From: a virus
Length of the DNA stretch: 26,386 nucleotides
Virus record (IMG/VR): IMGVR_UViG_3300046003_005393
Location: 1-26,386 of that record
Direction: 5' to 3' (one strand)
In this document: positions 757 to 18,608 of the stretch, in pieces
How the letters are laid out: the number at the start of each line of letters is the position of its first letter
Numbering within the stretch: the first letter of the stretch is position 1
The notes under the pieces: generated by a model
Database searches by the model: none
What the model was told of the DNA's origin: nothing
The model's input: only the letters and a program-made list of their open reading frames with translations
Translations under genes and position numbers: made by a program

Positions 757-3700
757 TTATTCGAAGCTTTGATTGATCGCTACCTTGTTGTGAGATATTA
801 GACCATTAGATATGTAAGTATGAGCGTCTTCAATTTCAAACTTAATAACTGTACCAGTTCCAATAGATTCGATATTAGATATCGTTCTATCTTCAATATA
901 ACCTTTAATAGATTCGCCTACAGTTAAAGCATATGAACGTTTCCATTCATCATTTGCCATTAAGAATTTATGTGAGTCAGATACTGTGATGTCTGTACCA
1001 TCAGTAAATGAGATTTTCAATTTCTCTTCGACTATAGGAGTTGCTTCCATGATTTTGAAGAAACCAAATTCTTTAGTAGTTTCATGCATTGTATATACAG
1101 TATCACCTACACTAAGTGAACCTGCAAGTACTGCTAATTCTTCAGTGATGTTAATTGGTGTCATTGGATCTGGACATCCACCTCCACCTCCACGTCTACC
1201 TCCATTTCTTACGATAGTGTCTCTAGAAGTTCTAGGAGTTACAACCTTAATTGTTTTAGATAGATCATCTAATGCGGCTTCGAAAGTTCTAACCGGAATG
1301 TCTTTAGTGATTAGAGATTTAGAGTAATATCTAGCAGTTACTTCGAGATCGAAAGAGAATCTTTCTTTATCGAGAGGGTTTACATATACGTCAATTCCTA
1401 TAGTTTTTGTGTATTCTAAATTAGTAGAACTATTTGAAGATTGTAAGCCAGCAATATTACCAAGACCTGCAGAACCAGTACCGAAATAATCTGTCATACG
1501 ATATTGGAATGTTATAGGGATAGTTAAAGCATTAGCATTTCCAAATTGTACATCTTTATATGAAATAGCATCTGAACCATTAACAATCAAATCTGTATGA
1601 GAATTTGGATTGACGAATAGGTAAGCACCTACGGATGCAGGACCTATCAAGAATTGATCGGACGAAGAGAAACCAATCTTTCCGTAAGAATCAGAAGTAG
1701 CGCCAGTGTTTCTGAAAAATAAACCGGTTTGTATATTTGATCCCGTAGAACCTTTCGAGATATTAGAAAGAATAGAATTTCTAACATATCCAGAAACAAC
1801 TGTAGATATAGTAGTTGTTGCACCAGCACCTTCAGTTATCCAAGAAGGGATATCCGGGTGATCAGTGTGTATGAATATCTGAGAATTGAATGTGTTAGTT
1901 ACGAATGTAGAACCTGCTGGAATCACATTAGTTGGAGATACACCACCTCTCCAGATAAAATCGGATGATGAAGAAGGTCCAGTGTAAGACGTTAATAAAT
2001 TCACTGTAGCTAGATATTCAATTTCAGAGAGTGTATTAGCAGTAGAACCAGTGAAAGTAGAACCAACTATGTATTGTCTAGAATTTTGAATTCCGTATGT
2101 TGCTCCTGCTGCAGTATTGCTATATAAGTTTCTAGTTCCATCTACCGAAGTGTATCTAGAATTAATAAATTGACCTGTAACTTGAGACGATTGCTGTGGT
2201 GTAGTTCTAATGAATCCATAAGTTGCAATATCATTTGAATCAGGGTTTGACAATCCTAAAGGTACAAAATCATATCTTCTTAACCTATTATAATCAGTAT
2301 CATTCAGATTATAATTGGTACCCGAAGCCCAAGAAGAATTTATTTTCGTATATTTTGAACCGTAGAATCTAGAGTATAACTCTAATACTGAGGCAGCATC
2401 ATTGCTAATTTTAATGAAGTAATTCTTAGTAATGATTACACCCTTCTTAATCGGAAGAGATGAGACTTGATCTCTATAATTACCTGCAAAAATACGTATA
2501 GTTGAGTTATTTTCAACTGTATATTCTTGACCTTGGTCATCGACAATTCGGATAGAAATACTTCCTTTTGCATTTGCAATAAGAGCTCTAATATTAGCTA
2601 ATTCAGAATCCATTGCAGTTAACTTATCGAAAAGATTGATAATGTTATTTTCTGGAGTTAAGAATCCAGAAGCAACATGTACAGCATCTGTGGTATAAAA
2701 ATCACCATTTTGAGATATCGTATAGTTAGATACCTTATCAAGACTCATAACTACTAATTCTGCTTGAAGTTCTACTTTTATTTGTTCTTTCTTAGCTTGT
2801 TCAACGATAGAATTAGCATCAGGGATAGATTCAAATTTAGCTGGAAAATCGACCTTAACAATTTCAGACCAAGTTGATTCAAGGGGAGTAACCGGCCAAC
2901 CTGCTTCAGAAAGAGATTTTATACGGAATTCAACACCTTCACCTTGTTGGATTGGGATATCAATTTGATTAATATTTACTACGTCTGCATTTTCAACATC
3001 ATCCACGGCCCAATTTGCAATACCTGTAGCAGGATCTATTTGACGAGCTCTAATTTCAGATTTATATTCAACCCAAGATGCGAATGTACCTCGTCTTTGT
3101 TGTCCGTCATTATCAACGAAGCCGATTTGTTGAGGTTGATTAGCTGAGCCATCTTTCTTAACATAACGATATTGAATAATGAATTGAACAACTTCTTGAG
3201 GTTTTGTTCTATCTGATGTTTTTGCATCTGGGATAGGAAAGAAACCTCTAAGTCTATATTTAGGTGTTAGATTTTCAACTGATTCCGAAGCAGCAATCTT
3301 ATTGATATCGTCTATAATAGAAGCATATAATGAAGATTGTCTTCCTCTTTCATCGATTAACTTAGACAATTGATTGTTATCTGTGTCTTGTAGCTTTTGT
3401 GATGAGTATCTAGTAGTTTGTATTTTTGTACGTATTTCGGAAATAGCTTTATCTGATGCAGATACTTGTGATTGTACACGAAGCTTATCTGCTTGCAATT
3501 TTTGTAGATTAGATAGAGAACCTGATGATGTTAAATGTTCATTAATTTGAAGAACTTCAAAGTTAGCTGGATTTAAAACTGGAGCATCTGGAACGATACC
3601 AAATATCGATGGTGGCGTTTTATCTTTTACTGATGAGTAAAGGAATGCACCGAAGTCAACTACTTCATTTTGATAGAACGTAGCAAGAGATGTCGTTGAT

Positions 3701-4794
3701 CCGTTACTAGGATCTACGATTTTTAAATTATTTGTATATAGACCTACACCAGGAGACCAATTTACTGATTGTATTCTAGAATCAGGATCGATAGGTTTTA
3801 CGAAAATTACACAATATTCATTGAAACCGATATTTACTTCTGCATTAACTTCAGCTTTTTCTTCACCGTAAAATGAAAGAACGTTTTTTCCGATTTTGAT
3901 TGCATCAAAACCTTCAACTAATTCAACTGATACCGTTCTAGTAGAAGCTTCAACATCAAGGATTCGATATCTTGTGTTTTGTCTTTGACTATTAACAACT
4001 AGAGAATCTCCAATTTTAAGTGAAGAAGTTCCTAAATATCTTGATTGATTATCGTTATATGATAGCTTATCTAATTGTACTCGAAGAACTCTTTTTTGAA
4101 CAGTAGCATTATTTACTGTAGAAGTGAGAGTATCATCGAAAACATTAGTAACTGTAAAGTCTCCGAAGTATCTTAAAGTTCTCGCAGGCATATCGATCAT
4201 TTCTCTATCTAAGAAATATGTTATACCGTTATCAAGAAGTACTTGTACGAAGTCTTGATAAACTATATCTGATTTACCTGAGAATCTATCATTGAAGATT
4301 CTTACCTTTTCTGCACTATCAAGATTTAGGATGTAACGAGCTACTTCAATTTTTTCAGTTTCATATTTGATCTGATTTGATAAATTGAAGGAAACATAGA
4401 GTAGAGGATTCATGAAAGATTCAAAGAACCAGTTTTCTCTTTTATTGAATGTCGTAGGAGCAGGCATTTGTTTAATGTCAGCTGCTTCTTTTTGTAAAGA
4501 CGATACTAGAATTTTTCTAAAAGTTCCATCTGAAAGTTGAATAGAAGATGTTGTATCTCCTACTCCAGATAAACTTTTAATATCTTGTTCCATTCTTACG
4601 AGCTGATTCTTTAGTGCTCCATATGAAGGGACGTATACTTTTTGAATTACTCCATTTCCGTCCATAACATCAACTTCAACAGTATCGGCATTGGATGAAA
4701 CTACGTCAGAGAGTTTCGTAATTATTTGATAACCATTGTTTTGTAGCTTCAACATATTGTTGAGCAAAGTAGTTAATGAGTATTTAGTTTGCAT
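757..4794 (-). CDS. Giant baseplate/tail structural protein with C-terminal Hint (intein-like) domain
   Basis: This 1345-residue protein is the last complete gene of the wedge/fibre block. Residues about 1-420 form a mixed N-terminal body. Residues 425-500 are rich in charged heptad-like sequence and probably coiled coil. Residues about 509-651 resemble a fibronectin type III domain (QFIIQYRY early, then VEFRIKSLSEAGWP and STWSEIVKV). Residues about 700-1195 are rich in Ser, Thr, Asn and Gly, as in fibre shafts. A glycine/arginine-rich linker then leads to a Hint domain from Cys1207 to Asn1336, followed by a 9-residue tail. The start ATG lies one base after the TAA of the upstream gene, consistent with coupled translation. 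Its role as a peripheral baseplate or fibre-attachment protein is inferred from position and composition. The Hint domain assignment is stronger than the structural role. Confidence 0.85.
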   Translation of the reverse strand: MQTKYSLTTLLNNMLKLQNNGYQIITKLSDVVSSNADTVEVDVMDGNGVIQKVYVPSYGALKNQLVRMEQDIKSLSGVGDTTSSIQLSDGTFRKILVSSLQKEAADIKQMPAPTTFNKRENWFFESFMNPLLYVSFNLSNQIKYETEKIEVARYILNLDSAEKVRIFNDRFSGKSDIVYQDFVQVLLDNGITYFLDREMIDMPARTLRYFGDFTVTNVFDDTLTSTVNNATVQKRVLRVQLDKLSYNDNQSRYLGTSSLKIGDSLVVNSQRQNTRYRILDVEASTRTVSVELVEGFDAIKIGKNVLSFYGEEKAEVNAEVNIGFNEYCVIFVKPIDPDSRIQSVNWSPGVGLYTNNLKIVDPSNGSTTSLATFYQNEVVDFGAFLYSSVKDKTPPSIFGIVPDAPVLNPANFEVLQINEHLTSSGSLSNLQKLQADKLRVQSQVSASDKAISEIRTKIQTTRYSSQKLQDTDNNQLSKLIDERGRQSSLYASIIDDINKIAASESVENLTPKYRLRGFFPIPDAKTSDRTKPQEVVQFIIQYRYVKKDGSANQPQQIGFVDNDGQQRRGTFASWVEYKSEIRARQIDPATGIANWAVDDVENADVVNINQIDIPIQQGEGVEFRIKSLSEAGWPVTPLESTWSEIVKVDFPAKFESIPDANSIVEQAKKEQIKVELQAELVVMSLDKVSNYTISQNGDFYTTDAVHVASGFLTPENNIINLFDKLTAMDSELANIRALIANAKGSISIRIVDDQGQEYTVENNSTIRIFAGNYRDQVSSLPIKKGVIITKNYFIKISNDAASVLELYSRFYGSKYTKINSSWASGTNYNLNDTDYNRLRRYDFVPLGLSNPDSNDIATYGFIRTTPQQSSQVTGQFINSRYTSVDGTRNLYSNTAAGATYGIQNSRQYIVGSTFTGSTANTLSEIEYLATVNLLTSYTGPSSSSDFIWRGGVSPTNVIPAGSTFVTNTFNSQIFIHTDHPDIPSWITEGAGATTTISTVVSGYVRNSILSNISKGSTGSNIQTGLFFRNTGATSDSYGKIGFSSSDQFLIGPASVGAYLFVNPNSHTDLIVNGSDAISYKDVQFGNANALTIPITFQYRMTDYFGTGSAGLGNIAGLQSSNSSTNLEYTKTIGIDVYVNPLDKERFSFDLEVTARYYSKSLITKDIPVRTFEAALDDLSKTIKVVTPRTSRDTIVRNGGRRGGGGGCPDPMTPINITEELAVLAGSLSVGDTVYTMHETTKEFGFFKIMEATPIVEEKLKISFTDGTDITVSDSHKFLMANDEWKRSYALTVGESIKGYIEDRTISNIESIGTGTVIKFEIEDAHTYISNGLISHNKVAINQSFE
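787..1176 (-). other. Hint domain (mini-intein / bacterial intein-like), residues 1207-1336 of the 1345-aa protein
   Basis: About 130 residues at the protein C-terminus fit the Hint fold. The nucleophile Cys1207 opens block A (CPDPMTPI, then LSVGDTVYTMHETT). His1275 lies in the block B position (VSDSHKF, with Ser where Thr is usual). Block F reads EIEDAHTYISNG and block G ends SHN at His1335-Asn1336. The domain follows a GGRRGGGGG linker. The residue after Asn is Lys, not Cys, Ser or Thr, so the canonical trans-esterification acceptor is missing and cleavage or atypical ligation is more likely than ordinary splicing. There is no room for a homing endonuclease. C-terminal Hint domains after glycine-rich linkers and ending HNK are a known layout on phage tail proteins; their purpose is not settled. 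Confidence 0.88.
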
Positions 4795-11331: not shown

Positions 11332-11579
11332 TATTGATTATATCTTCTATCGTTTTTATCGATCGTGTAATTGTAGAAAAATTGAATTTTCTTAACTGTA
11401 TCCAGAAGTTCAATGAACATCGGATCAATCATTTTTAGGAATGTAGACAATCTAGGGTTACCGTACATTGATGGAGATAACCATTTGTCTATAAGACCGT
11501 TAGTAGCATAATCAAAACCCATCGAGATTCTCTTTTCCGAGCTTTGAAGCATTTTGTTATATATCGAGTCTTTATACAT
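11331..11579 (-). CDS. Small protein between gp6-like and gp7/gpI-like genes, 82 aa
   Basis: This short gene of 82 codons is joined to both neighbours by TAATG overlaps, one at its start (with the gp6-like gene) and one at its stop (with the 1285-aa gene). That tight coupling is the best evidence that it is real. The product is mostly helical and fairly basic at the start (MYKDSIYNKMLQSSEKR), with a central hydrophobic helix (FLKMIDPMFIELLDTVKKI) and a polar, Tyr-containing end. It is too short for known wedge proteins. It may be a small wedge component, or the split-off N-terminal piece of the adjacent protein. No family is recognised. Confidence 0.75.
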   Translation of the reverse strand: MYKDSIYNKMLQSSEKRISMGFDYATNGLIDKWLSPSMYGNPRLSTFLKMIDPMFIELLDTVKKIQFFYNYTIDKNDRRYNQ

Positions 11580-13342
11580 TACTTAAGGGATTCTTTATTT
11601 GAGTTCATTATCTTAACCGAAAGAGTTTCACGGATAACATCTTTAATGACTAGATTAACAGAACAGTATTGATTCAAGTTAATTCCGTCTTCGTAATAAT
11701 TTCCAAATCTATCATAGAATCCACCACGGATAACAGGCATTTCATTCAATCCAATTTGAATATCTCCAAAATCGTCAAGACCTAAATTTGGATCGTCACC
11801 TGGAGTTAGATTAATTTGATTCTGTGTAACCACAGTTATTCCTCTAACTCTATCGATAGTGTTAACGTTTTGTATGTAGAATCCATCGATGATAGCTCTT
11901 TCATTTTTCTCAGAAACGAAAGATATGTTAACCGAGTCAACTCCTTTAATACCTTCGATCATTGCAATGATATCAGATTTTGGAATTTTATCTCTTCTAT
12001 TAACTTTCAATAAATATTCTGAAACCTTATTGATGATTTCGTTTTTCAATGTAGGTTGATCGATAGTATCATAAATTCTCAAATAGATGTTAAGAGCATA
12101 TTTAGTTAATATTGGATCGATAACTTGTAATTCTGTAGATATGATTTGTTTTCCACTCATATCAATAAAGTCGATTAAAGCATTTTTCTCTTCTTCATCC
12201 AAATAGAAATTAGTCAGTGGTGTTGTGTAATAATCTGTGTTCTGAGACAATCTTCTAGAAATATCTGGAATCAAGAACAGATAAACGACATTATCATCTG
12301 CAATATAATCATCATCACGTGTAGTATAAGCATTAACATATGAGTAATTGAATCTAGATAAGAAATTGATATAATTGTCAGGGTTTGCTAGTACATATGA
12401 TCTACTAGTTTTAGGTGCAATAAGTTTAGTCAATTCAGGTGATTCACCGTCAGCTCCAAGAAGAACAGATTTTTCGATATATATGTCGAAAACGTTATTT
12501 AAGTCAACCTCTTCACCAGTATTTGCGAATCCGGATTCAAGGAATTTGAATTCGATTGAAGATGATTTCGAGAATATATTTCCTTGGAATCCGTCAGACT
12601 TAACGTATGTTACCGATATTGCAGCTCCTAGTGGAGGAATAACTCCATAATCTTCGTTTCCAAAGTATAAGTCGATTCCACCAGAAATTCCAGTCTTAAC
12701 CATACAAAGCTTTTGTCCTTTAGGCATATCATAAAGTGAATCAACTACTTCATAATTTTCTCCATTAACAGTAACATAAACCATTTCATTTTCGATAGAT
12801 CCTTTAGACATCAAAGTGAATGATTGTAGCTCTTTTCCTGTACCAGTAACAACTTGAGTTTCTAACTCTCCTTGTACGATTTTAATCGGAAAAACGTCTT
12901 TACTTTTTAAGTCAATTCTTAAACTTCCGTTATAGTTTCCTAATTGAACGAAATATTTTTTGTTATTGTTAGTACATGAGATTTTAGTTTGATCTAAAAG
13001 AAGTAAGTATGTAGCATTAATTGGAAGATCTGCTCCAGCTTTTATCTTTAAGTTCAATGTACCTTGTGCAGAAAGAGCTCTAGTAGGATTGTGACCTGTT
13101 AGTCTAGCCCATCCATAGATAGATCTTTGTTTTGTAGCCGTGTAGATGTTTAATTCTACTAATGAATCTTCAATATAGAAGAACATCATCTGAGCAAACT
13201 CTTGAATAACTGCAAGAATTTGTCCGTAAGGAGATGACTTCGCAAATACTGAATATGATTGCGAATATGTGTCAATCAACCAATCTCTAACCGCTACTTG
13301 GATTTGATTAAACGATATTTTACTTGGGTCTAGAAATTTCAT
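11579..13342 (-). CDS. Baseplate wedge protein gp6/gpJ-like
   Basis: The 587-residue product has the layout of the gp6/Mu gp47/P2 gpJ baseplate family, which forms the iris-like ring joining wedges around the hub. The helical N-terminus (residues 1-80) includes QVAVRDWLIDTY and a segment on assembling next to the inner ring. Residues 227-256 carry the family core FGNEDYGVIPPLGAAISVTY followed by GFQGNI. Residues 300-340 (SPELTKLIAPKTSRS, then DNYINFLSRF) match the conserved central helix pair. Residues 405-475 (DPILTKYALNIYLRI, QPTLKNEIINKVSEYL, IEGIKGVDSVNIS) form the typical C-terminal alpha/beta domain. It directly follows gp25, as in many contractile tails. The family call is strong. Confidence 0.9.
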   Translation of the reverse strand: MKFLDPSKISFNQIQVAVRDWLIDTYSQSYSVFAKSSPYGQILAVIQEFAQMMFFYIEDSLVELNIYTATKQRSIYGWARLTGHNPTRALSAQGTLNLKIKAGADLPINATYLLLLDQTKISCTNNNKKYFVQLGNYNGSLRIDLKSKDVFPIKIVQGELETQVVTGTGKELQSFTLMSKGSIENEMVYVTVNGENYEVVDSLYDMPKGQKLCMVKTGISGGIDLYFGNEDYGVIPPLGAAISVTYVKSDGFQGNIFSKSSSIEFKFLESGFANTGEEVDLNNVFDIYIEKSVLLGADGESPELTKLIAPKTSRSYVLANPDNYINFLSRFNYSYVNAYTTRDDDYIADDNVVYLFLIPDISRRLSQNTDYYTTPLTNFYLDEEEKNALIDFIDMSGKQIISTELQVIDPILTKYALNIYLRIYDTIDQPTLKNEIINKVSEYLLKVNRRDKIPKSDIIAMIEGIKGVDSVNISFVSEKNERAIIDGFYIQNVNTIDRVRGITVVTQNQINLTPGDDPNLGLDDFGDIQIGLNEMPVIRGGFYDRFGNYYEDGINLNQYCSVNLVIKDVIRETLSVKIMNSNKESLK

Positions 13343-13356
13343 TTTTAGATTTACTT

Positions 13357-13728
13357 TTATGGTGCTACTGCGTAACCAGCAACTTTTGTTCCGTCGATTA
13401 AGATATCAACGATTATCGTATCCCATACTTCACCTTTCAAGAAACTAACTTGAATATCGTAAGGAATACTTCCGAATTCGTCAAAGTTAACATACTTGAT
13501 TACTTGATTTATGATATCTTGCTTAATTACACCAGCACCTGTAGTGGTAGTCCATAGATAAGAATCTAAAGACACTCCGAAGTCAGGATCTCCAAGAAGA
13601 GAACCTTTAGGTGTTGTGAGAATCATTTCTAACTGTTGCAAGAAATTCTCCAAGGAATCAATTACCTCTATCTCCGTTGGATCGTAATAAGGATATGATT
13701 GTAACTTGAAATATATGTCGATTGCCAT
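13357..13728 (-). CDS. Baseplate wedge protein gp25-like (GPW/gp25 family)
   Basis: At 123 residues this has the usual length for gp25/gpW proteins, the small wedge component that contacts the first sheath ring and the gp6 iris. The signature is the helix NFLQQLEMILTTPKGSLLGD followed by DPDFGVSLDSYLW (residues 28-59), which corresponds to the family's I-L-t-x-x-G-E-R-x-x-x-P-x-F-G motif. Here GSLL replaces the usual GER, a divergence also seen in other distant members. A beta-rich C-terminus (SIPYDIQVSFLKGE) completes the fold. It lies immediately upstream of the gp6-like gene. The leader GAATAAATAATAA is five bases before the ATG, with no Shine-Dalgarno sequence. Confidence 0.9.
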   Translation of the reverse strand: MAIDIYFKLQSYPYYDPTEIEVIDSLENFLQQLEMILTTPKGSLLGDPDFGVSLDSYLWTTTTGAGVIKQDIINQVIKYVNFDEFGSIPYDIQVSFLKGEVWDTIIVDILIDGTKVAGYAVAP

Positions 13729-13750: not shown

Positions 13751-14536
13751 TTAAGATCCTCCAGATGTAAAGAAGAAGTCCATTCCTTCGTCTGCTTTAA
13801 TCTCTTCTTCAATTTTTTGTACTTCGTCTTGACCTTCAGAACGAATCAAATCGTAATTGATTTGAATGTTTCCTGGCAAATTAAAATTGAATGTACCTAA
13901 AATACGAGAAAGCTGAATTTTACATTTAGCTACTACGTATCTGTAGAATACTTCATCGTTCATTAAATGTTCTAGTGGAACTTTAACATAACACATTGCA
14001 ACGCAATCTCTATCTGGAGTTTCACCTGCAATAAATAGTCTATGTGAGTTACGATTATAATTGAAACTTACGGTATGATTGATTACATGAGATGCAACAT
14101 CTAACCAATAAAGATTTAAAACGTAGTACATTAAGTTTTCTGTACCTTGACCAATAGAAACTGAGTCAGATAAGAATAAACGTTCAATACCAAAATCGGC
14201 AGTACCGTCAAATGACATTGATCTAGCAAAGTCTTCTTTAAGTTTCTTTAAACCCCAAATCGAAAATACACAGTCTGGCATAGTTACCGTTCTGTCTCTT
14301 TTAAATTGATCAGTTTTGAAAAAATTCGTAGAGATGAAATAATATCTTTCTTCTACTGCATCTTCATATTTCTTATAGAACCAATCCGCTGAATACTTGA
14401 TGATACGTTGAATCTCTGATACAGGAACTGTGAAAGGCAATGCACAAGCAACGCTCAATTCTTGTTGAATTGTAGCGATAAATTCGTCTTGTGTCATTCC
14501 TAATCCGCCTGGTGTGCAATTATCAATTGTTGGCAT
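13751..14536 (-). CDS. Virion structural protein (neck- or baseplate-type), 261 aa
   Basis: The 261-residue protein starts MPTIDNCTPGGLGMTQDEF and has an N-terminal helical region (residues 15-70, EIQRIIKYSADWFYKKYEDA, then EERYYFIS), a beta-rich middle, and a C-terminal pattern RYVVAKCKIQLSRILGTFNF followed by LPGNIQINYD and acidic QDEVQKIEEEIK. The last pattern resembles neck/connector-type proteins of myoviruses, in which a helix packs before a Gly/Pro-containing loop and an acidic helix. Its position next to gp25 and gp6 could equally indicate a baseplate role. The start overlaps the stop of the 453-aa gene as TAATG, indicating coupling. It contains six Cys, a fairly high number for a cytoplasmically assembled virion protein. 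The gene is certain, the function uncertain. Confidence 0.8.
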   Translation of the reverse strand: MPTIDNCTPGGLGMTQDEFIATIQQELSVACALPFTVPVSEIQRIIKYSADWFYKKYEDAVEERYYFISTNFFKTDQFKRDRTVTMPDCVFSIWGLKKLKEDFARSMSFDGTADFGIERLFLSDSVSIGQGTENLMYYVLNLYWLDVASHVINHTVSFNYNRNSHRLFIAGETPDRDCVAMCYVKVPLEHLMNDEVFYRYVVAKCKIQLSRILGTFNFNLPGNIQINYDLIRSEGQDEVQKIEEEIKADEGMDFFFTSGGS

Positions 14537-15897
14537 TATAGTTGATTAAATTTTTTTGTCGGTATGATGATCTGATCACCTGCAACAACATAACCAGTTT
14601 TAAGTGGCTGGTATTGTATAACCGTTGTTTCCGGGGAGATGTCAGCAAATAAACCAACCTTTCCTTTTTTGAAGATTCCACCTTCCATTTTACCGTTTAG
14701 AACTCCACCAATACCGTCAATTTCTGAATTGATTATTTCAGTTGTTCTATTAGCAAAAGAATCATAAAGATTACATCTTTTTGCTTGTGTATGTAAGAAT
14801 AAGTTGCATTGATTTAATATTGCATCTTGAATCTCACAATCAAAAAAGTCACATTTAGTAAATGTTCCGTAAAGGATTTTACATTTGATGAATTCGACAC
14901 CAGCTATATTTCTACATGAGACATCAGCTTCTTTGATTTGGAATACTGACAATGTTGTGTCATAATTCAATTCAAATCCACCTTTAATTGTCATATTCGA
15001 TACTATATCATAAATACGATCTCTTAAAATGCTATAATAAGATTCGAGAACTTTTGGTGCATTAACCAAATCTATCGTAAATTCTATCTTAGGGAAATTC
15101 TGTTTGAATACTGCATAGTCATAATAAGCATCTCGAATTTTCTTTCTAGTTAAGACAGCTTTTTCGAATGTGATTAAATTGTCTTTTGAGAATCCTCGAT
15201 TAATTGTACAATCCCAAGCAGTTACACAAAATTGATTAAGTATTGATAGGATGTCTTCTACTTTTTTATCATAACCAGCTCCACCGATATATTGCATTCT
15301 CAAATAACCTTCATTAAGAGTTTCAAAATTGATACCACTATTTTTTGTAGTTGGCATCGAATAAACTCTAGGGTCTACGGATTCATTCTCTTTAGGAATG
15401 AATTTCTGAGTAGGCTCAAACTGAAGGATTGTTTGTGAATTGAATGAATCTTTTCGAGTAGGGAATGCTTTGTAAACTTTCTGTTCGTCAAATTCTAGAA
15501 TGAATCTTAATTTGTCAATGTTGTCTATCTTAGTAGAAGTGTTAAAAAGTGTGCCTTTAAAAGGACCTTTCTGTTCATCTAAAAATTTCAAATCCAGGAA
15601 AAAATTATCATTTCTGCTAGTTGTTCCATTTCTCTCAATCCATTTACATAGATTGATAATGACTAATCTTGCGTCTCTATATAACATAAAAGGAGTCTCC
15701 AAATGGTAGATTCCGTCTTCTGTTCTTTTTAGCTGGAAATTATATGATGATGGCTCAGAAACTGAAACTTTAGTCTTCAATTCTTTGCTCAATTCGGAAA
15801 CTGCCGACCTTGGATTCTTATCTGATTCAAAATCGGCAGTTAAACGAATAAGTGATTTCTCGAATAAAGTTGATAGAGTGTGTGAGTTGAAATTCAT
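14536..15897 (-). CDS. Amidoligase-like protein with C-terminal pentapeptide-repeat solenoid
   Basis: Residues about 1-310 of this 453-aa protein have features I associate with phage proteins labelled putative amidoligase: a helix ending in WIERNGTTSRNDN (86-98), NIDKLRFILEFDEQKVYKAF (126-145), INFETLNEGYLRM (189-201) and QYIGGAGYDKK (202-212). The His residues usual in the Gly-x-His-x-His-type strand are absent here (NFFLDLKF instead), so any enzyme activity is doubtful. Residues about 324-370 form a clear pentapeptide-repeat solenoid, with a hydrophobic residue at 326, 331, 336, 341, 346, 351, 356, 361 and 366 and small Cys/Ala/Gly residues two positions before most of them. Glycine-rich turns follow to about 415. 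The amidoligase relation rests on memory without a search and is tentative; the repeat is seen directly. It sits between S1 and a structural gene, suggesting a virion or assembly role. Confidence 0.78.
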   Translation of the reverse strand: MNFNSHTLSTLFEKSLIRLTADFESDKNPRSAVSELSKELKTKVSVSEPSSYNFQLKRTEDGIYHLETPFMLYRDARLVIINLCKWIERNGTTSRNDNFFLDLKFLDEQKGPFKGTLFNTSTKIDNIDKLRFILEFDEQKVYKAFPTRKDSFNSQTILQFEPTQKFIPKENESVDPRVYSMPTTKNSGINFETLNEGYLRMQYIGGAGYDKKVEDILSILNQFCVTAWDCTINRGFSKDNLITFEKAVLTRKKIRDAYYDYAVFKQNFPKIEFTIDLVNAPKVLESYYSILRDRIYDIVSNMTIKGGFELNYDTTLSVFQIKEADVSCRNIAGVEFIKCKILYGTFTKCDFFDCEIQDAILNQCNLFLHTQAKRCNLYDSFANRTTEIINSEIDGIGGVLNGKMEGGIFKKGKVGLFADISPETTVIQYQPLKTGYVVAGDQIIIPTKKFNQL

Positions 15898-15933: not shown

Positions 15934-17103
15934 TTACATAGCAAAATCAACTTTTTTAGATTCTTTATCAATCTTTGTGATTCTTACGTCAATTTCTTGA
16001 CCTACTTCTAATTCATAATCTTCACTTAAATGTGATTTATGAAGGAGACCTACGATTTTTGGTTCAAGTTCGATGAATACACCGTATCTTACGATTTTCT
16101 TAACTTTACCTGTTACCGTAGAAGGAACTTTATATCGAGATTCGATATCATCCCAAGCTGAAGGTTCAATTGTGATAGGTTTTTGTGATAAAACGATTTT
16201 GTCGTTATCGATAACTTCTTTAACGAAGAATTTGATTGCGTCACCTGGACGAATCTTTTGATTGTCGAAGTTATCAAGATTCTCAGCGAGAATGTCATTT
16301 CTAGAGATAAGACCTGTTAAGCAGCTATTAAACTCGGCAAAGATACCATGACGACTACATCCAGTAACAAATCCTTCGTATTCAACTCCGGCTTGTAATT
16401 CTGAAATAGTTTGTGGTACAAGGGCTTTAAGATATTCTCTATGAGAAACAACGATGTAGTTTTTCTCTTTCGAGTAATTGATTGGCATAACGTAAAGTGA
16501 TTTTCCAATCAACTCTTCGAAGTTTACCAATTTGTTCATACCACCAAGTGATCCTGGCATGAAACATTCTACTCCTGCAACATCTACGAAATAACCACCA
16601 TGGATTAGTTCTTTTACTGTACCTAAGTAAGCAACCGGATTACCGATAGAAGAAAGTAATTCTTCTCTTTTCTTAGCTACGATGTTTTTAGAATATGAAG
16701 CAATAATGCTATATGAGTTAGAACCATGCGTAGTTCCAGTTTTTTCAATGAGTACCTCGATCGGGAATCCAGGTTGAATGTACTTGAGGAATTCAGGGTT
16801 CTCCTTTCTCAATTCTATCATTGCGTCTTCTCTCCAATTAACGTCGACCATCGCATAATCTTTGTTAATTGAAACTACTTTACCTTCAACTACGGAACCG
16901 GTTTTAGGTTCAACTAAGTGAGATAAAGATCCATTGTACAATTCGTAAAGTTCTTGAGCGTAAGGCTCTCTACAGAAAACTTTAGATGTATCACCTGGAT
17001 GTCTTTTTACTCTTGGGTTGTGTTTTTTGTGATTTGGAACAGATGCTTCAAATAAGTCCCAATCAAATTCGCCAGAGGCGTTGAAGTAATTTTCTTCAGT
17101 CAT
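15934..17103 (-). CDS. Phage-encoded ribosomal protein S1 homologue (four S1 domains)
   Basis: This 389-residue protein contains four S1 RNA-binding domains: about 69-139 (VVEGKVVSINKDYAMVDVNW), 155-227 (GTVKELIHGGYFVDVAG, then CFMPGS and YIVVSHREYLK), 238-308 (YEGFVTGCSRHGIFAEF, then GLISRND) and 326-389 (VTGKVKKIVRYGVFIELEP, then GLLHKSHLS). Domain 2 has the V-x-x-x-x-x-GG-x-x-V-x-x-x-G-x-x-x-F-x-P-x-S pattern of genuine ribosomal S1, rather than a generic S1-fold RNase. Bacterial S1 usually has six domains in Bacteroidota (about 600 aa), so this form is shorter. The N-terminus contains FDWDLFEA (13-20), close to Bacteroidota S1 proteins. S1 recruits structured or Shine-Dalgarno-poor mRNA to the 30S subunit. 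A role in favouring phage mRNAs is inferred. It is the only translation gene in a tail operon. Confidence 0.92.
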   Translation of the reverse strand: MTEENYFNASGEFDWDLFEASVPNHKKHNPRVKRHPGDTSKVFCREPYAQELYELYNGSLSHLVEPKTGSVVEGKVVSINKDYAMVDVNWREDAMIELRKENPEFLKYIQPGFPIEVLIEKTGTTHGSNSYSIIASYSKNIVAKKREELLSSIGNPVAYLGTVKELIHGGYFVDVAGVECFMPGSLGGMNKLVNFEELIGKSLYVMPINYSKEKNYIVVSHREYLKALVPQTISELQAGVEYEGFVTGCSRHGIFAEFNSCLTGLISRNDILAENLDNFDNQKIRPGDAIKFFVKEVIDNDKIVLSQKPITIEPSAWDDIESRYKVPSTVTGKVKKIVRYGVFIELEPKIVGLLHKSHLSEDYELEVGQEIDVRITKIDKESKKVDFAM

Positions 17104-17175
17104 TTTTTTGTTTGTTAGAGGTGAATAAAATAGTATTTGATTATTTGATTATATATCTCAATCAATGGTATGAAT
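17104..17175 (-). promoter_or_regulatory. Leader of the S1 gene: longest noncoding gap, TATAAT box and A-rich start region
   Basis: These 72 bases between the 210-aa gene and S1 are the longest noncoding stretch in the window. On the minus strand they contain TATAAT (17153-17148), tandem AATCAAAT copies just after it, a small inverted repeat TTGATT/AATCAA, and ACAAACAAAAAA directly before the ATG. No Shine-Dalgarno sequence is present. The layout suggests a separate promoter for S1 and an A-rich S1-binding leader, possibly used for autoregulation as known for E. coli S1. This is inference from an AT-rich sequence. Confidence 0.35.
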
Positions 17176-17808
17176 TTATGCTACAGCAATAAAAGGAAAC
17201 GGAGGCCCTGGTACGGGTGAAGGGGAAGCGGGTATGAGTCCAGTGAATGTGCCTGCGATTTTAAGAAGATGCTCAGTATAAGCTAAAATCAAAGCTGTGA
17301 CAAATACATTGAATGCTGTTGTTTGGTTGGTTTCGGTTTGAGCTATAAAGAAAGCTCTTGCTAGATCTTTTTTAAGAGCTGCTGGATCTCCTGGAACTGC
17401 TACTTTATATCCTACTGTCGGAGCTACATATCCAGGCGGAACTGTAGCTGGAGTGAAAATTTCTTTAGACCACTCAGAACATATCACTGCTGCAACTGGT
17501 GCAAAAATATCTTCAAGTTTCTTTCTCGAATTTTCAATGTTAGGATTTGGATTGTTACCTTTATAGTCAGGAGTTATTTCAATGTTTTCTTTTTGAAGCT
17601 TAGTGAATGCAGCTTCATACGCAGATTTTACTGATCCTTTAGAAATTCCAATCGTAGCTTTACTAGATGTCATTACTAATTTAGCAGTCTTTACTGCATT
17701 AACATATTCTGTTGCATGAATATCTGCTAATTCTGAAATAGACATTTGATTAGGTACACCCAATTTTGCTTTCAGATTAGAGCGAAAAGTAGACCAATTA
17801 GAAGCCAT
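17176..17808 (-). CDS. Uncharacterised 210-aa protein next to the spike gene, Pro-rich C-terminus
   Basis: The 210-residue protein is mostly helical. The N-terminal half is rich in Ala, Lys and Ser (NWSTFRSNLKAKLGV, LADIHATEYVNAVKTAK). The middle carries a Pro-containing segment (ATVPPGYVAPTVGY), then helix FFIAQTETNQTTAFNVF. The final 25 residues are Gly/Pro-rich (FTGLIPASPSPVPGPPFPF). It begins two bases after the spike gene stop, with the start preceded by ACTAAATAATT. Lying directly after a gp5/gpV-like spike suggests a role at the spike or hub, but there is no PAAR motif (no conserved His/Cys metal site). No family is recognised. It could also be a tail-assembly factor. Confidence 0.8.
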   Translation of the reverse strand: MASNWSTFRSNLKAKLGVPNQMSISELADIHATEYVNAVKTAKLVMTSSKATIGISKGSVKSAYEAAFTKLQKENIEITPDYKGNNPNPNIENSRKKLEDIFAPVAAVICSEWSKEIFTPATVPPGYVAPTVGYKVAVPGDPAALKKDLARAFFIAQTETNQTTAFNVFVTALILAYTEHLLKIAGTFTGLIPASPSPVPGPPFPFIAVA

Positions 17809-17810
17809 AA

Positions 17811-18608
17811 TTATTTAGTTGTAGAAACGTTACTTAATGAAGGTTTTGCAGATGTGGTAGGTTTTGAACTTGGACCTGCAGGTGTAGGATGGATATGATT
17901 ATCGAAGATATCAGCAAAAATATTACCTTTGATTACAGATTCAGTTGCACCTCTACCTAATTCAATCTTAGGAGAATCAACTATGGCTTTGGCAGAAGCA
18001 GTTATGTCTGCATTAACACATTTAGCTTTAATATCAGCCTTAGCAGTAATATTGATTGTAGCATCAGACTTGATATTGATATTACTAGCATGAGTGACAT
18101 TCAGAGTTCCATCATCTACTAATTCAATTTTAGATTTACCAGAAGCTGTATGAATATCAATAGATTTATCTGGTTTGATATTGATCTGAGTTTGTTTATA
18201 ATCGAGCATTAAACCTTTCTTTTCAGTAAAGAATATTTTTAGAAAGCCTTCTGTTACATTATCGTAAACAATCACATGTGCATTAGGATAAGATTCGCTA
18301 ATTTCTGCTTTAACCTCATCTGAAATTTTCTGCTGAAAGAAGTACTCAGGATGATAGATGTTTCCCATATCAAATTTCACAGAAACTATAGAACCTTTCT
18401 TCGGAACTGAGAAGAATCCGCCACCTGAAGCAGCACCTCCAGTATGATTATTTCCTGGATAAGCCCAAGGAATACTTTCAACTGGGATATCGTCAAATTT
18501 TCCGTATACTTTTACTTTAACACGTCCTACTTTTTGTGGATCTTCAATATCCACAACTTCACCGAGCCAAGTCGTTGCAAGTAGGTCGTCACTATATGAA
18601 TTTATCAT
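17811..18608 (-). CDS. Baseplate spike protein, gp5/gpV-like (OB fold plus beta-helix), no lysozyme domain
   Basis: The 265-residue product has an OB-fold domain at about 13-95 (WLGEVVDIEDPQKVGRVKVK, IPWAYPGNN, GSIVSVKFDMGN), the standard start of gp5, gpV and VgrG spikes. Residues about 140-215 contain short repeating strands (NINIKSDATINITAKADIKA) typical of the trimeric beta-helix needle. NHIHPTPAGPS at 237-247 carries an HxH pair (His238, His240); in P2 gpV and related spikes such pairs from three chains bind an iron ion at the tip. Unlike T4 gp5, no lysozyme domain lies between the OB fold and needle, so cell-wall digestion must be elsewhere if needed. The 18 Ser/Thr/Lys-rich residues after the tip are unusual. 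It is located beside the hub gene. Confidence 0.88.
   Translation of the reverse strand: MINSYSDDLLATTWLGEVVDIEDPQKVGRVKVKVYGKFDDIPVESIPWAYPGNNHTGGAASGGGFFSVPKKGSIVSVKFDMGNIYHPEYFFQQKISDEVKAEISESYPNAHVIVYDNVTEGFLKIFFTEKKGLMLDYKQTQINIKPDKSIDIHTASGKSKIELVDDGTLNVTHASNINIKSDATINITAKADIKAKCVNADITASAKAIVDSPKIELGRGATESVIKGNIFADIFDNHIHPTPAGPSSKPTTSAKPSLSNVSTTK

What the first reader, a model, noticed from the sequence alone, without database searches (positions are those of the whole stretch)
15934..17103. Ribosomal protein S1 homologue embedded in a phage baseplate operon
Seen in sequence: four S1 domains, the second with the GG and F-x-P-x-S pattern of true ribosomal S1, flanked on both sides by virion genes in the same orientation. 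Established: S1 and a few other ribosomal proteins have been reported in large phages and viral metagenomes, and S1 helps the 30S subunit use mRNAs without a strong Shine-Dalgarno sequence. Inference: expression with late structural genes may bias ribosomes to phage late mRNA, whose leaders here lack Shine-Dalgarno sequences. The placement among baseplate genes, rather than with replication or tRNA genes, is the unusual point.
Basis: partly seen in the sequence, partly recalled or inferred. Interest (0 to 1): 0.75.

Follow-up and report, generated by a model that had tools for sequence, protein, structure and literature searches.

The report
Huge-phage ribosomal S1 at tail locus
This gene encodes a shortened, virus-owned version of a ribosomal protein that helps ribosomes catch messenger RNA; it sits among the tail genes of a large group of giant bacteriophages that probably infect Bacteroidota, and it was always present there when the sequence reached far enough to tell.

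Summary
ORF 15934-17103 (minus strand, 389 aa) has four S1/OB domains that align colinearly with domains 1-4 of ribosomal bS1. It lies, co-oriented, inside a tail/baseplate gene block. The placement is fixed: of 80 loci picked by a neighbouring neck gene, all 71 whose sequence reaches far enough carry S1 there. The family is viral: at least 586 relatives in IMG/VR against 3 hits in 84,980 cellular genomes. It forms one group with the S1s of Lak phages and mahaphages. It keeps an N-terminal F-D-W-x-x-[YF] motif otherwise seen only in Bacteroidota cellular S1. Its RNA-binding aromatics are conserved, and it has its own promoter-like element. Best reading: a bS1 mimic that docks on the host 30S late in infection. 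Leaders do lack Shine-Dalgarno sequences, but so do those of related jumbo phages, most with Bacteroidota hosts, that have no S1. Missing Shine-Dalgarno sequences therefore track lineage or host, not S1. S1 in huge phages, and its link to missing Shine-Dalgarno sequences, was published in 2020 (PMC7162821). Late-locus placement of a phage ribosomal protein (bS21) was published in 2022 (PMC9723584). New here: one viral family, fixed locus, host-type N-terminus, and the Shine-Dalgarno confounder. Ribosome binding is untested.

The parts
15934..17103 (-). Phage bS1-like gene, 389 aa, four S1/OB domains
17050..17067 (-). N-terminal F-D-W-D-L-F motif (residues 13-18), shared with Bacteroidota cellular bS1
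   Evidence: F[DNMQE]W..[YFL] in 74 of 82 phage S1s; in 4 of 4 Bacteroidota-type S1s; in none of the other cellular S1s examined
16918..16959 (-). Predicted helix (residues 49-62, YAQELYELYNGSLS region), in the place of the E. coli uS2-docking helix
   Evidence: (helix 49-62), alignment; E. coli Phe5/Phe9 role from PMC10123108
16696..16905 (-). S1 domain 1 (residues 67-136, approximate)
16438..16635 (-). S1 domain 2 (residues 157-222) with GGY...FMPGS
   Evidence: Y171 and F181 (E. coli F120 and F130) present in 28 of 28 phage sequences
16177..16389 (-). S1 domain 3 (residues 239-309)
15937..16131 (-). S1 domain 4 (residues 325-389), canonical RNA-binding residues Y340, F343, H355
   Evidence: Y340 in 27 of 28, F343 in 27 of 28, H355 in 27 of 28
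17150..17157 (-). GATATATA promoter-like motif 54 nt before the ATG
   Evidence: in 34 of 40 distinct S1 leaders, 0.57 expected; in 18 of 26 leaders of the next gene (14536-15897 family); 158 on the coding strand, 4 on the other
17115..17122 (-). S1-specific leader element ACCTCTAA (family pattern ACY{2-6}AA)
   Evidence: 37 of 40 S1 leaders, rare before most other genes
17811..18608 (-). gp5-like baseplate OB protein, conserved upstream neighbour
   Evidence: Pfam Phage_base_V 4.1e-7, phrog_37871 1.2e-18
17176..17808 (-). Immediate upstream gene, function unknown, weakly conserved
   Evidence: (no match)
14536..15897 (-). Immediate downstream gene, function unknown, conserved in the cassette
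13751..14536 (-). Head-tail adaptor Ad2-like neck protein
   Evidence: phrog_211 4.8e-14
13357..13728 (-). gp25-like baseplate wedge protein
   Evidence: phrog_43 1.1e-6; Pfam GPW_gp25 0.0035, below its cut-off
11579..13342 (-). gp6-like baseplate wedge protein
   Evidence: phrog_219 5.6e-22

Best explanation
A virus-owned, four-domain mimic of ribosomal bS1. Shown: its sequence and fold match bS1 domains 1-4; the non-RNA-binding D1-D2 half and the RNA-binding D3-D4 half keep the bS1 residue pattern; its N-terminus keeps a motif otherwise seen only in Bacteroidota bS1; the gene is a fixed member of the tail block with its own promoter-like element. Inferred: made late, it takes the bS1 place on the host 30S through its N-terminal segment and D1-D2, on uS2 near the mRNA exit, and uses D3-D4 to hold SD-less, A-rich leaders. 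Domain 4 of E. coli bS1 is placed near mRNA nt -12 to -15 (PMC6847099). Leaders in this clade are richest in A at -13/-14. It would thus keep up or raise initiation on late phage mRNA when late demand peaks or host bS1 runs short. Selectivity for phage over host mRNA is not shown and cannot come from SD absence.
For: bS1 is the best match in four searches. D2 GG and F-x-P-x-S, and D4 Y/F/H, almost invariant. F-D-W motif in 74 of 82 phage S1s and in all four Bacteroidota-type S1s, not in E. coli, alphaproteobacterial, actinobacterial, Bacillota, chlamydial or Sulfurovum S1. Strong purifying selection: L003/L004 dN 0.026, dS 0.50; L049/L066 dN 0.067, dS 0.90. Present in all 71 cassette loci long enough to tell. 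One S1 protein of this kind per huge-phage genome. Leaders A 0.64-0.69 at -14/-13 in 452 relatives. Hosts probably Bacteroidota: baseplate and fibre homologues mostly in Prevotella, Tenacibaculum, Flavobacterium and Chryseobacterium phages. Purified F. johnsoniae bS1 doubled initiation on an SD-less mRNA in vitro (PMC9976891).
Against: No ribosome binding, expression or infection data. Scores lie far below every curated cellular rpsA cut-off (175 against 524 bits). Domains 5-6 are missing. E. coli Phe5/Phe9 of the uS2-docking helix are not clearly matched (Y53 and Y56; aromatic in 15 of 28 at the second). In the window D3 lacks two canonical residues (H252 and S267 for Y and H), although other members keep them. 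Related jumbo phages with the same SD-less leaders do without S1.
Confidence: 0.6

Rival explanations
1. Host shut-off or dominant-negative S1. The truncated protein takes the bS1 site on 30S but, lacking domains 5-6, supports host mRNAs poorly and so frees ribosomes for phage mRNA.
For: Four domains against six in the Bacteroidota S1s seen here; host-type N-terminal motif; D1-D2 kept.
Against: RNA-binding residues of D4, and of D3 in most members, are strongly kept, which a pure blocker would not need; location and promoter suggest late rather than early expression.
Confidence: 0.18
2. Tail or virion protein: an S1 protein recruited as a baseplate or tail assembly factor, or packaged into the virion.
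For: Fixed position between baseplate and neck genes; promoter-like motif shared with the next gene.
Against: Related jumbo phages with homologous baseplate genes have no S1; Lak and mahaphages keep S1 far from their gp6 homologue and Lak keeps it beside replication and tRNA genes; RNA-binding residues are conserved; no PHROG tail match.
Confidence: 0.1
3. RNA chaperone, antitermination or mRNA-stability factor acting on phage transcripts away from the ribosome.
For: bS1 has extraribosomal roles with phages (RegB activation in T4, Q-beta replicase, lambda beta; cited in PMC13157829); D3-D4 resemble RNA-binding S1 domains.
Against: The D1-D2 half and the Bacteroidota-type N-terminus are conserved, and the D1-D2 half of bS1 serves ribosome docking.
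Confidence: 0.12

Closest known systems
rpS1 of huge phages (Al-Shayeb et al. 2020, PMC7162821)
   Same: Same kind of protein; relatives lie in that study's genomes (LR756500 to LR756504) and in Lak phages; the absence of SD sequences was reported there.
   Different: That paper says true rpS1 is hard to confirm and reads the SD correlation as a role in initiation. Here: bS1-specific features, one viral family, a fixed tail-cassette position, and relatives without S1 that also lack SD sequences.
Phage-encoded bS21 at a late structural locus (Chen et al. 2022, PMC9723584)
   Same: A ribosomal protein gene fixed among structural genes, Bacteroidota hosts, proposed late ribosome takeover.
   Different: Different protein and neighbours (terminase, capsid). 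The long contigs of the window clade have no bS21 match, while mahaphages have both. No expression data here.
Cellular Bacteroidota bS1 (e.g. PDB 9zcd, Bacteroides/Parabacteroides/Prevotella rpsA)
   Same: N-terminal F-[DN]-W-x-x-F motif, domains 1-4.
   Different: Six domains in the cell, four in the phage; about 26% identity; long separating branch.
PhiMa05 bS1 (PMC13157829)
   Same: An S1 in a record described as a jumbo phage.
   Different: Groups with cellular S1s, not with the huge-phage family; next to isoprenoid and L21/L27 genes.

Membership tests
Ribosomal protein bS1 | Four to six tandem S1/OB domains, no other catalytic domain | tested here: met
   Four OB domains over 67-389
Ribosomal protein bS1 | Colinear match to bS1 domains 1-4, better than to other S1-fold proteins | tested here: met
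   Top NCBIfam, PDB and Foldseek hits are all bS1
Ribosomal protein bS1 | Curated NCBIfam rpsA equivalog cut-off | tested here: not met
   175.5 bits against a cut-off of 524 (NF004952). The cut-offs were set on cellular proteins, so the protein is called bS1-like rather than bS1
Ribosomal protein bS1 | D2 signature GG and F-x-P-x-S | tested here: met
   G170, F181, P183, S185 in 28 of 28 and G169 in 27 of 28
Ribosomal protein bS1 | RNA-binding aromatics and His in D3 and D4 | tested here: met
   D4 Y340/F343/H355 in 27 of 28 each; D3 F255 in 28 of 28, but H252 and S267 differ in the window
Ribosomal protein bS1 | N-terminal helix with aromatics that stack on uS2 | tested here: inconclusive
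   A helix is predicted at 49-62 with Y53 and Y56; not a clean match to E. coli Phe5/Phe9
Ribosomal protein bS1 | Association with the 30S subunit | not testable with these tools
   Needs biochemistry
Huge-phage rpS1 family | Groups with Lak and mahaphage S1 apart from cellular S1 | tested here: met
   One group, support 100/100, on a stem of 1.63 changes per column
Huge-phage rpS1 family | Leaders without Shine-Dalgarno sequences | tested here: met
   but also true of relatives without S1, so not diagnostic
Late-locus phage ribosomal proteins (bS21 type) | Gene fixed among structural genes | tested here: met
   71 of 71 loci long enough to tell
Late-locus phage ribosomal proteins (bS21 type) | Late expression | not tested
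   Only a promoter-like motif; no transcript data
Baseplate/tail structural protein | Tail family match, or needed in related baseplates | tested here: not met
   No PHROG match; homologous baseplate genes without S1 in five related phages

The most novel reading that the evidence does not exclude
A viral bS1 lineage, derived once from a Bacteroidota-type bS1 and then fixed in a late tail cassette, replaces host bS1 during late infection to build phage-specific ribosomes, and controls its own synthesis through a conserved S1-only leader element. Selection of phage mRNA would rest on leader features other than the missing Shine-Dalgarno sequence.
Probability: 0.3. Interest if true: 0.78.

Novelty: new member of a known kind. 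Interest (0 to 1): 0.5.

Why it matters
If the protein replaces host bS1, these phages would be a natural experiment in how S1 directs initiation where Shine-Dalgarno pairing is not used, an open question in Bacteroidota. The SD control also corrects a published inference: the link between phage rpS1 and absent SD sequences can be explained by lineage or host. The fixed locus and the near-absence from cellular genomes make this a family that could be defined and tested, and it may serve as a marker gene for a large clade of huge phages.

Tried and rejected
Host-derived contamination: rejected, since the gene is embedded in phage genes in over 80 contigs and the family is nearly absent from cellular genomes. 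RNase, PNPase or NusA: rejected, because those matches are weaker and cover only the C-terminal S1 domain. Same-cassette homologues around S1 in Lak and mahaphages: none within 15 kb by profile search. Possible counter-example L209 (no S1 upstream of the cassette): the contig ends inside an insertion before S1 would start, so it does not count. A sister relation to Bacteroidota S1 in the tree: neither supported nor rejected (AU p 0.125); long branches. Asking for more Bacteroidota genomes with a plasmid locus as centre failed, so cellular Bacteroidota S1 rests on four sequences. PhiMa05, L018 and several 'phage' records carry cellular-type rpsA and were used as cellular outgroups.

Full report
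WHAT IS THERE. The ORF 15934-17103 on the minus strand starts with ATG and encodes 389 aa. Pfam finds S1 domains (3.5e-28). The eleven best NCBIfam models are all 30S ribosomal protein S1; the best (NF004952, 1.4e-51) covers residues 64-388 against model positions 43-372, that is domains 1-4. No curated rpsA cut-off is reached (175 against 524 bits), so I call it bS1-like. In the PDB the best sequence hits are bS1. An AlphaFold2 model from 35 aligned window, IMG/VR and genome-contig sequences has mean pLDDT 83.5, pTM 0.54 and four OB barrels joined flexibly. Foldseek's best hit is bS1 in a 30S mRNA delivery complex (9gut_B, 1e-25).

THE SURROUNDINGS. All large ORFs of the window lie on the same strand. 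Neighbours with family matches are a gp5-like baseplate OB protein (17811-18608), an Ad2-like neck protein (13751-14536), a gp25-like protein (13357-13728) and a gp6-like protein (11579-13342). The genes directly beside S1 (17176-17808 and 14536-15897) match no family.

HOW WIDESPREAD AND HOW FIXED. The same search in 84,980 bacterial and archaeal genomes gave three hits: one beside phage gp25/gp6 homologues (L092), one Lak-like by sequence and tree (L093), and one covering only a single C-terminal domain (L094). In the S1-selected IMG/VR loci, and in LR756500 (462 kb), the order gp5-like - S1 - 14536-family - neck - gp25 - gp6 is kept in one orientation down to about 40% S1 identity. Since those loci were chosen by S1, I repeated the search with the neck protein as query. 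Of 80 loci, 71 carry S1 in the same place; in the other nine the contig ends first. The one doubtful case, L209, ends inside an insertion. So S1 is a core gene of this clade.

ONE VIRAL FAMILY. In a tree of 47 S1 proteins over domains 1-4, all phage sequences (this clade, mahaphages and Lak phages) form one group apart from 14 cellular-type S1s, with support 100/100 and a stem of 1.63 changes per column. Long branches call for caution. A clade of phage plus Bacteroidota S1 is not rejected (AU p 0.125). The S1 of PhiMa05 groups with cellular S1s. The window clade is under strong purifying selection.

HOST-TYPE N-TERMINUS AND RNA-BINDING RESIDUES. 74 of 82 phage S1s carry F-[DNMQE]-W-x-x-[YFL] near the N-terminus; most of the eight exceptions keep a close variant. 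The same motif begins the four Bacteroidota-type cellular S1s at hand (NFDWDAF, DFNWDAF, DFNWEEF, NFNWHNF). PDB 9zcd is assigned to Bacteroidota here by its similarity and tree position; the tool does not name its organism. The motif is absent from the E. coli, alphaproteobacterial, actinobacterial, Bacillota, chlamydial and Sulfurovum S1s examined. A second predicted helix (49-62) lies where the E. coli uS2-docking helix lies, with tyrosines instead of Phe5/Phe9 (PMC10123108). Positions equal to E. coli F120 and F130, which contact mRNA in that structure, are Y and F in 28 of 28. Domain 4 keeps Y, F and H in 27 of 28. The C-terminus falls at the end of domain 4.

EXPRESSION SIGNALS. GATATATA occurs 15-100 nt before the S1 start in 34 of 40 distinct loci, against 0.57 expected, and in 18 of 26 loci before the next gene; other genes hardly have it. 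Over all loci it is on the coding strand 158 times and on the other strand 4 times; part of that bias may come from coding sequence. A second element, ACY{2-6}AA at about -24 to -12, is in 37 of 40 S1 leaders and is rare before most other genes. So S1 probably has its own promoter inside the block and may regulate itself. Both are inferences from sequence.

THE SHINE-DALGARNO QUESTION. Leaders lack SD sequences: 1 of 22 in the window, 4% of 452 in relatives, equal to shuffles; T4 late genes 76%. Adenine peaks at -13/-14 (0.69 and 0.64). In Flavobacterium johnsoniae adenines at -12/-13 promote initiation, and bS1 has been proposed to read them because domain 4 lies near -12 to -15 (PMC6847099). 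But five jumbo phages of the same baseplate lineage have no S1 domain at all and also lack SD sequences (0-10%, shuffled 3-4%). Four of them infect Bacteroidota; the fifth, PAU, is listed on Sphingomonas. SD absence therefore follows lineage or host, and the published correlation between rpS1 and missing SD sequences in huge phages (PMC7162821) is confounded.

HOST. Baseplate and fibre homologues occur in Prevotella (Lak), Tenacibaculum, Flavobacterium and Chryseobacterium phages, with Sphingomonas phage PAU, some Rhizobium phages (baseplate gene) and Corynebacterium phages (fibre gene) as exceptions. With the F-D-W motif and the leader type, a Bacteroidota host is likely but not shown.

MOST LIKELY WORKING. 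The phage makes a four-domain bS1 late. It docks on host 30S through its N-terminal segment and D1-D2, and presents D3-D4 to A-rich leaders. This supplements or replaces host bS1 when tail and capsid synthesis peaks. Shown: architecture, residue conservation, gene position, signals. Inferred: ribosome binding, timing, effect. Rivals are dominant-negative shut-off, an off-ribosome RNA role, and a tail protein; the last is weakened by relatives that have the baseplate genes without S1 and by Lak phages, where S1 sits beside DnaB helicase, tRNA-His guanylyltransferase and RNA ligase.

NOVELTY. S1 in huge phages is known (PMC7162821), and a late-locus phage ribosomal protein is known for bS21 (PMC9723584). 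New here, as far as the searched papers show, are the single viral family, the invariant tail-cassette position, the Bacteroidota-type N-terminus, the S1-specific leader element and the SD confounder. I rate it a new member of a known kind, of middle interest.

Noticed in passing
window 757-4794 (-), aa about 1203-1337; L003 3394-3798, L004 3434-3838, L005, L011: A Hint/intein-like domain ends the tail-fibre-like protein (Pfam Intein_splicing 0.0012, below its cut-off). A related stretch lies directly upstream of, and apparently inside, the homologue of window 22208-23860 in L003-L005 and L011, suggesting an intein that moved between two virion proteins.
   Followed up: partly
S1 leaders in about 40 loci; window 17115-17122: S1-only leader element ACY{2-6}AA, a candidate autoregulatory site or promoter downstream element.
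   Followed up: partly
whole cassette; window 17150-17157: GATATATA looks like a phage late-promoter motif, with 158 coding-strand against 4 opposite-strand copies in 1.39 Mb; also before the 14536-15897 and 22208-23860 gene families.
   Followed up: partly
MW495066 (L017): The record described as jumbo phage PhiMa05 with six ribosomal proteins carries ispG, ispH, mqnC, thiL, trpS and cheB around rpsA, and its S1 groups with cellular S1s; the gene content looks cellular, although PMC13157829 argues for prophages.
   Followed up: no
INPHARED records OR847547, OR846962, OR845856, PQ520047, CAKLQH020000011, MT835643 and others: Several records labelled as phages contain cellular-type rpsA and look like host contamination.
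   Followed up: no
L092 (Erysipelotrichaceae MAG contig) and L093 (Clostridium MAG contig): Huge-phage and Lak-like S1 genes binned in Bacillota MAGs; probably phage contigs in the wrong bins, or hosts outside Bacteroidota. In L092 S1 diverges from gp25/gp6 instead of being co-oriented.
   Followed up: partly
LR756501, LR756502, LR756504: Mahaphages encode both S1 and bS21, while the long contigs of the window clade have S1 without a bS21 match.
   Followed up: partly
L037-L091 (mainly the lower-identity half): A subgroup has a 30-45 aa basic, variable N-terminal extension (MxxKKRxRI...) before the F-D-W motif.
   Followed up: no
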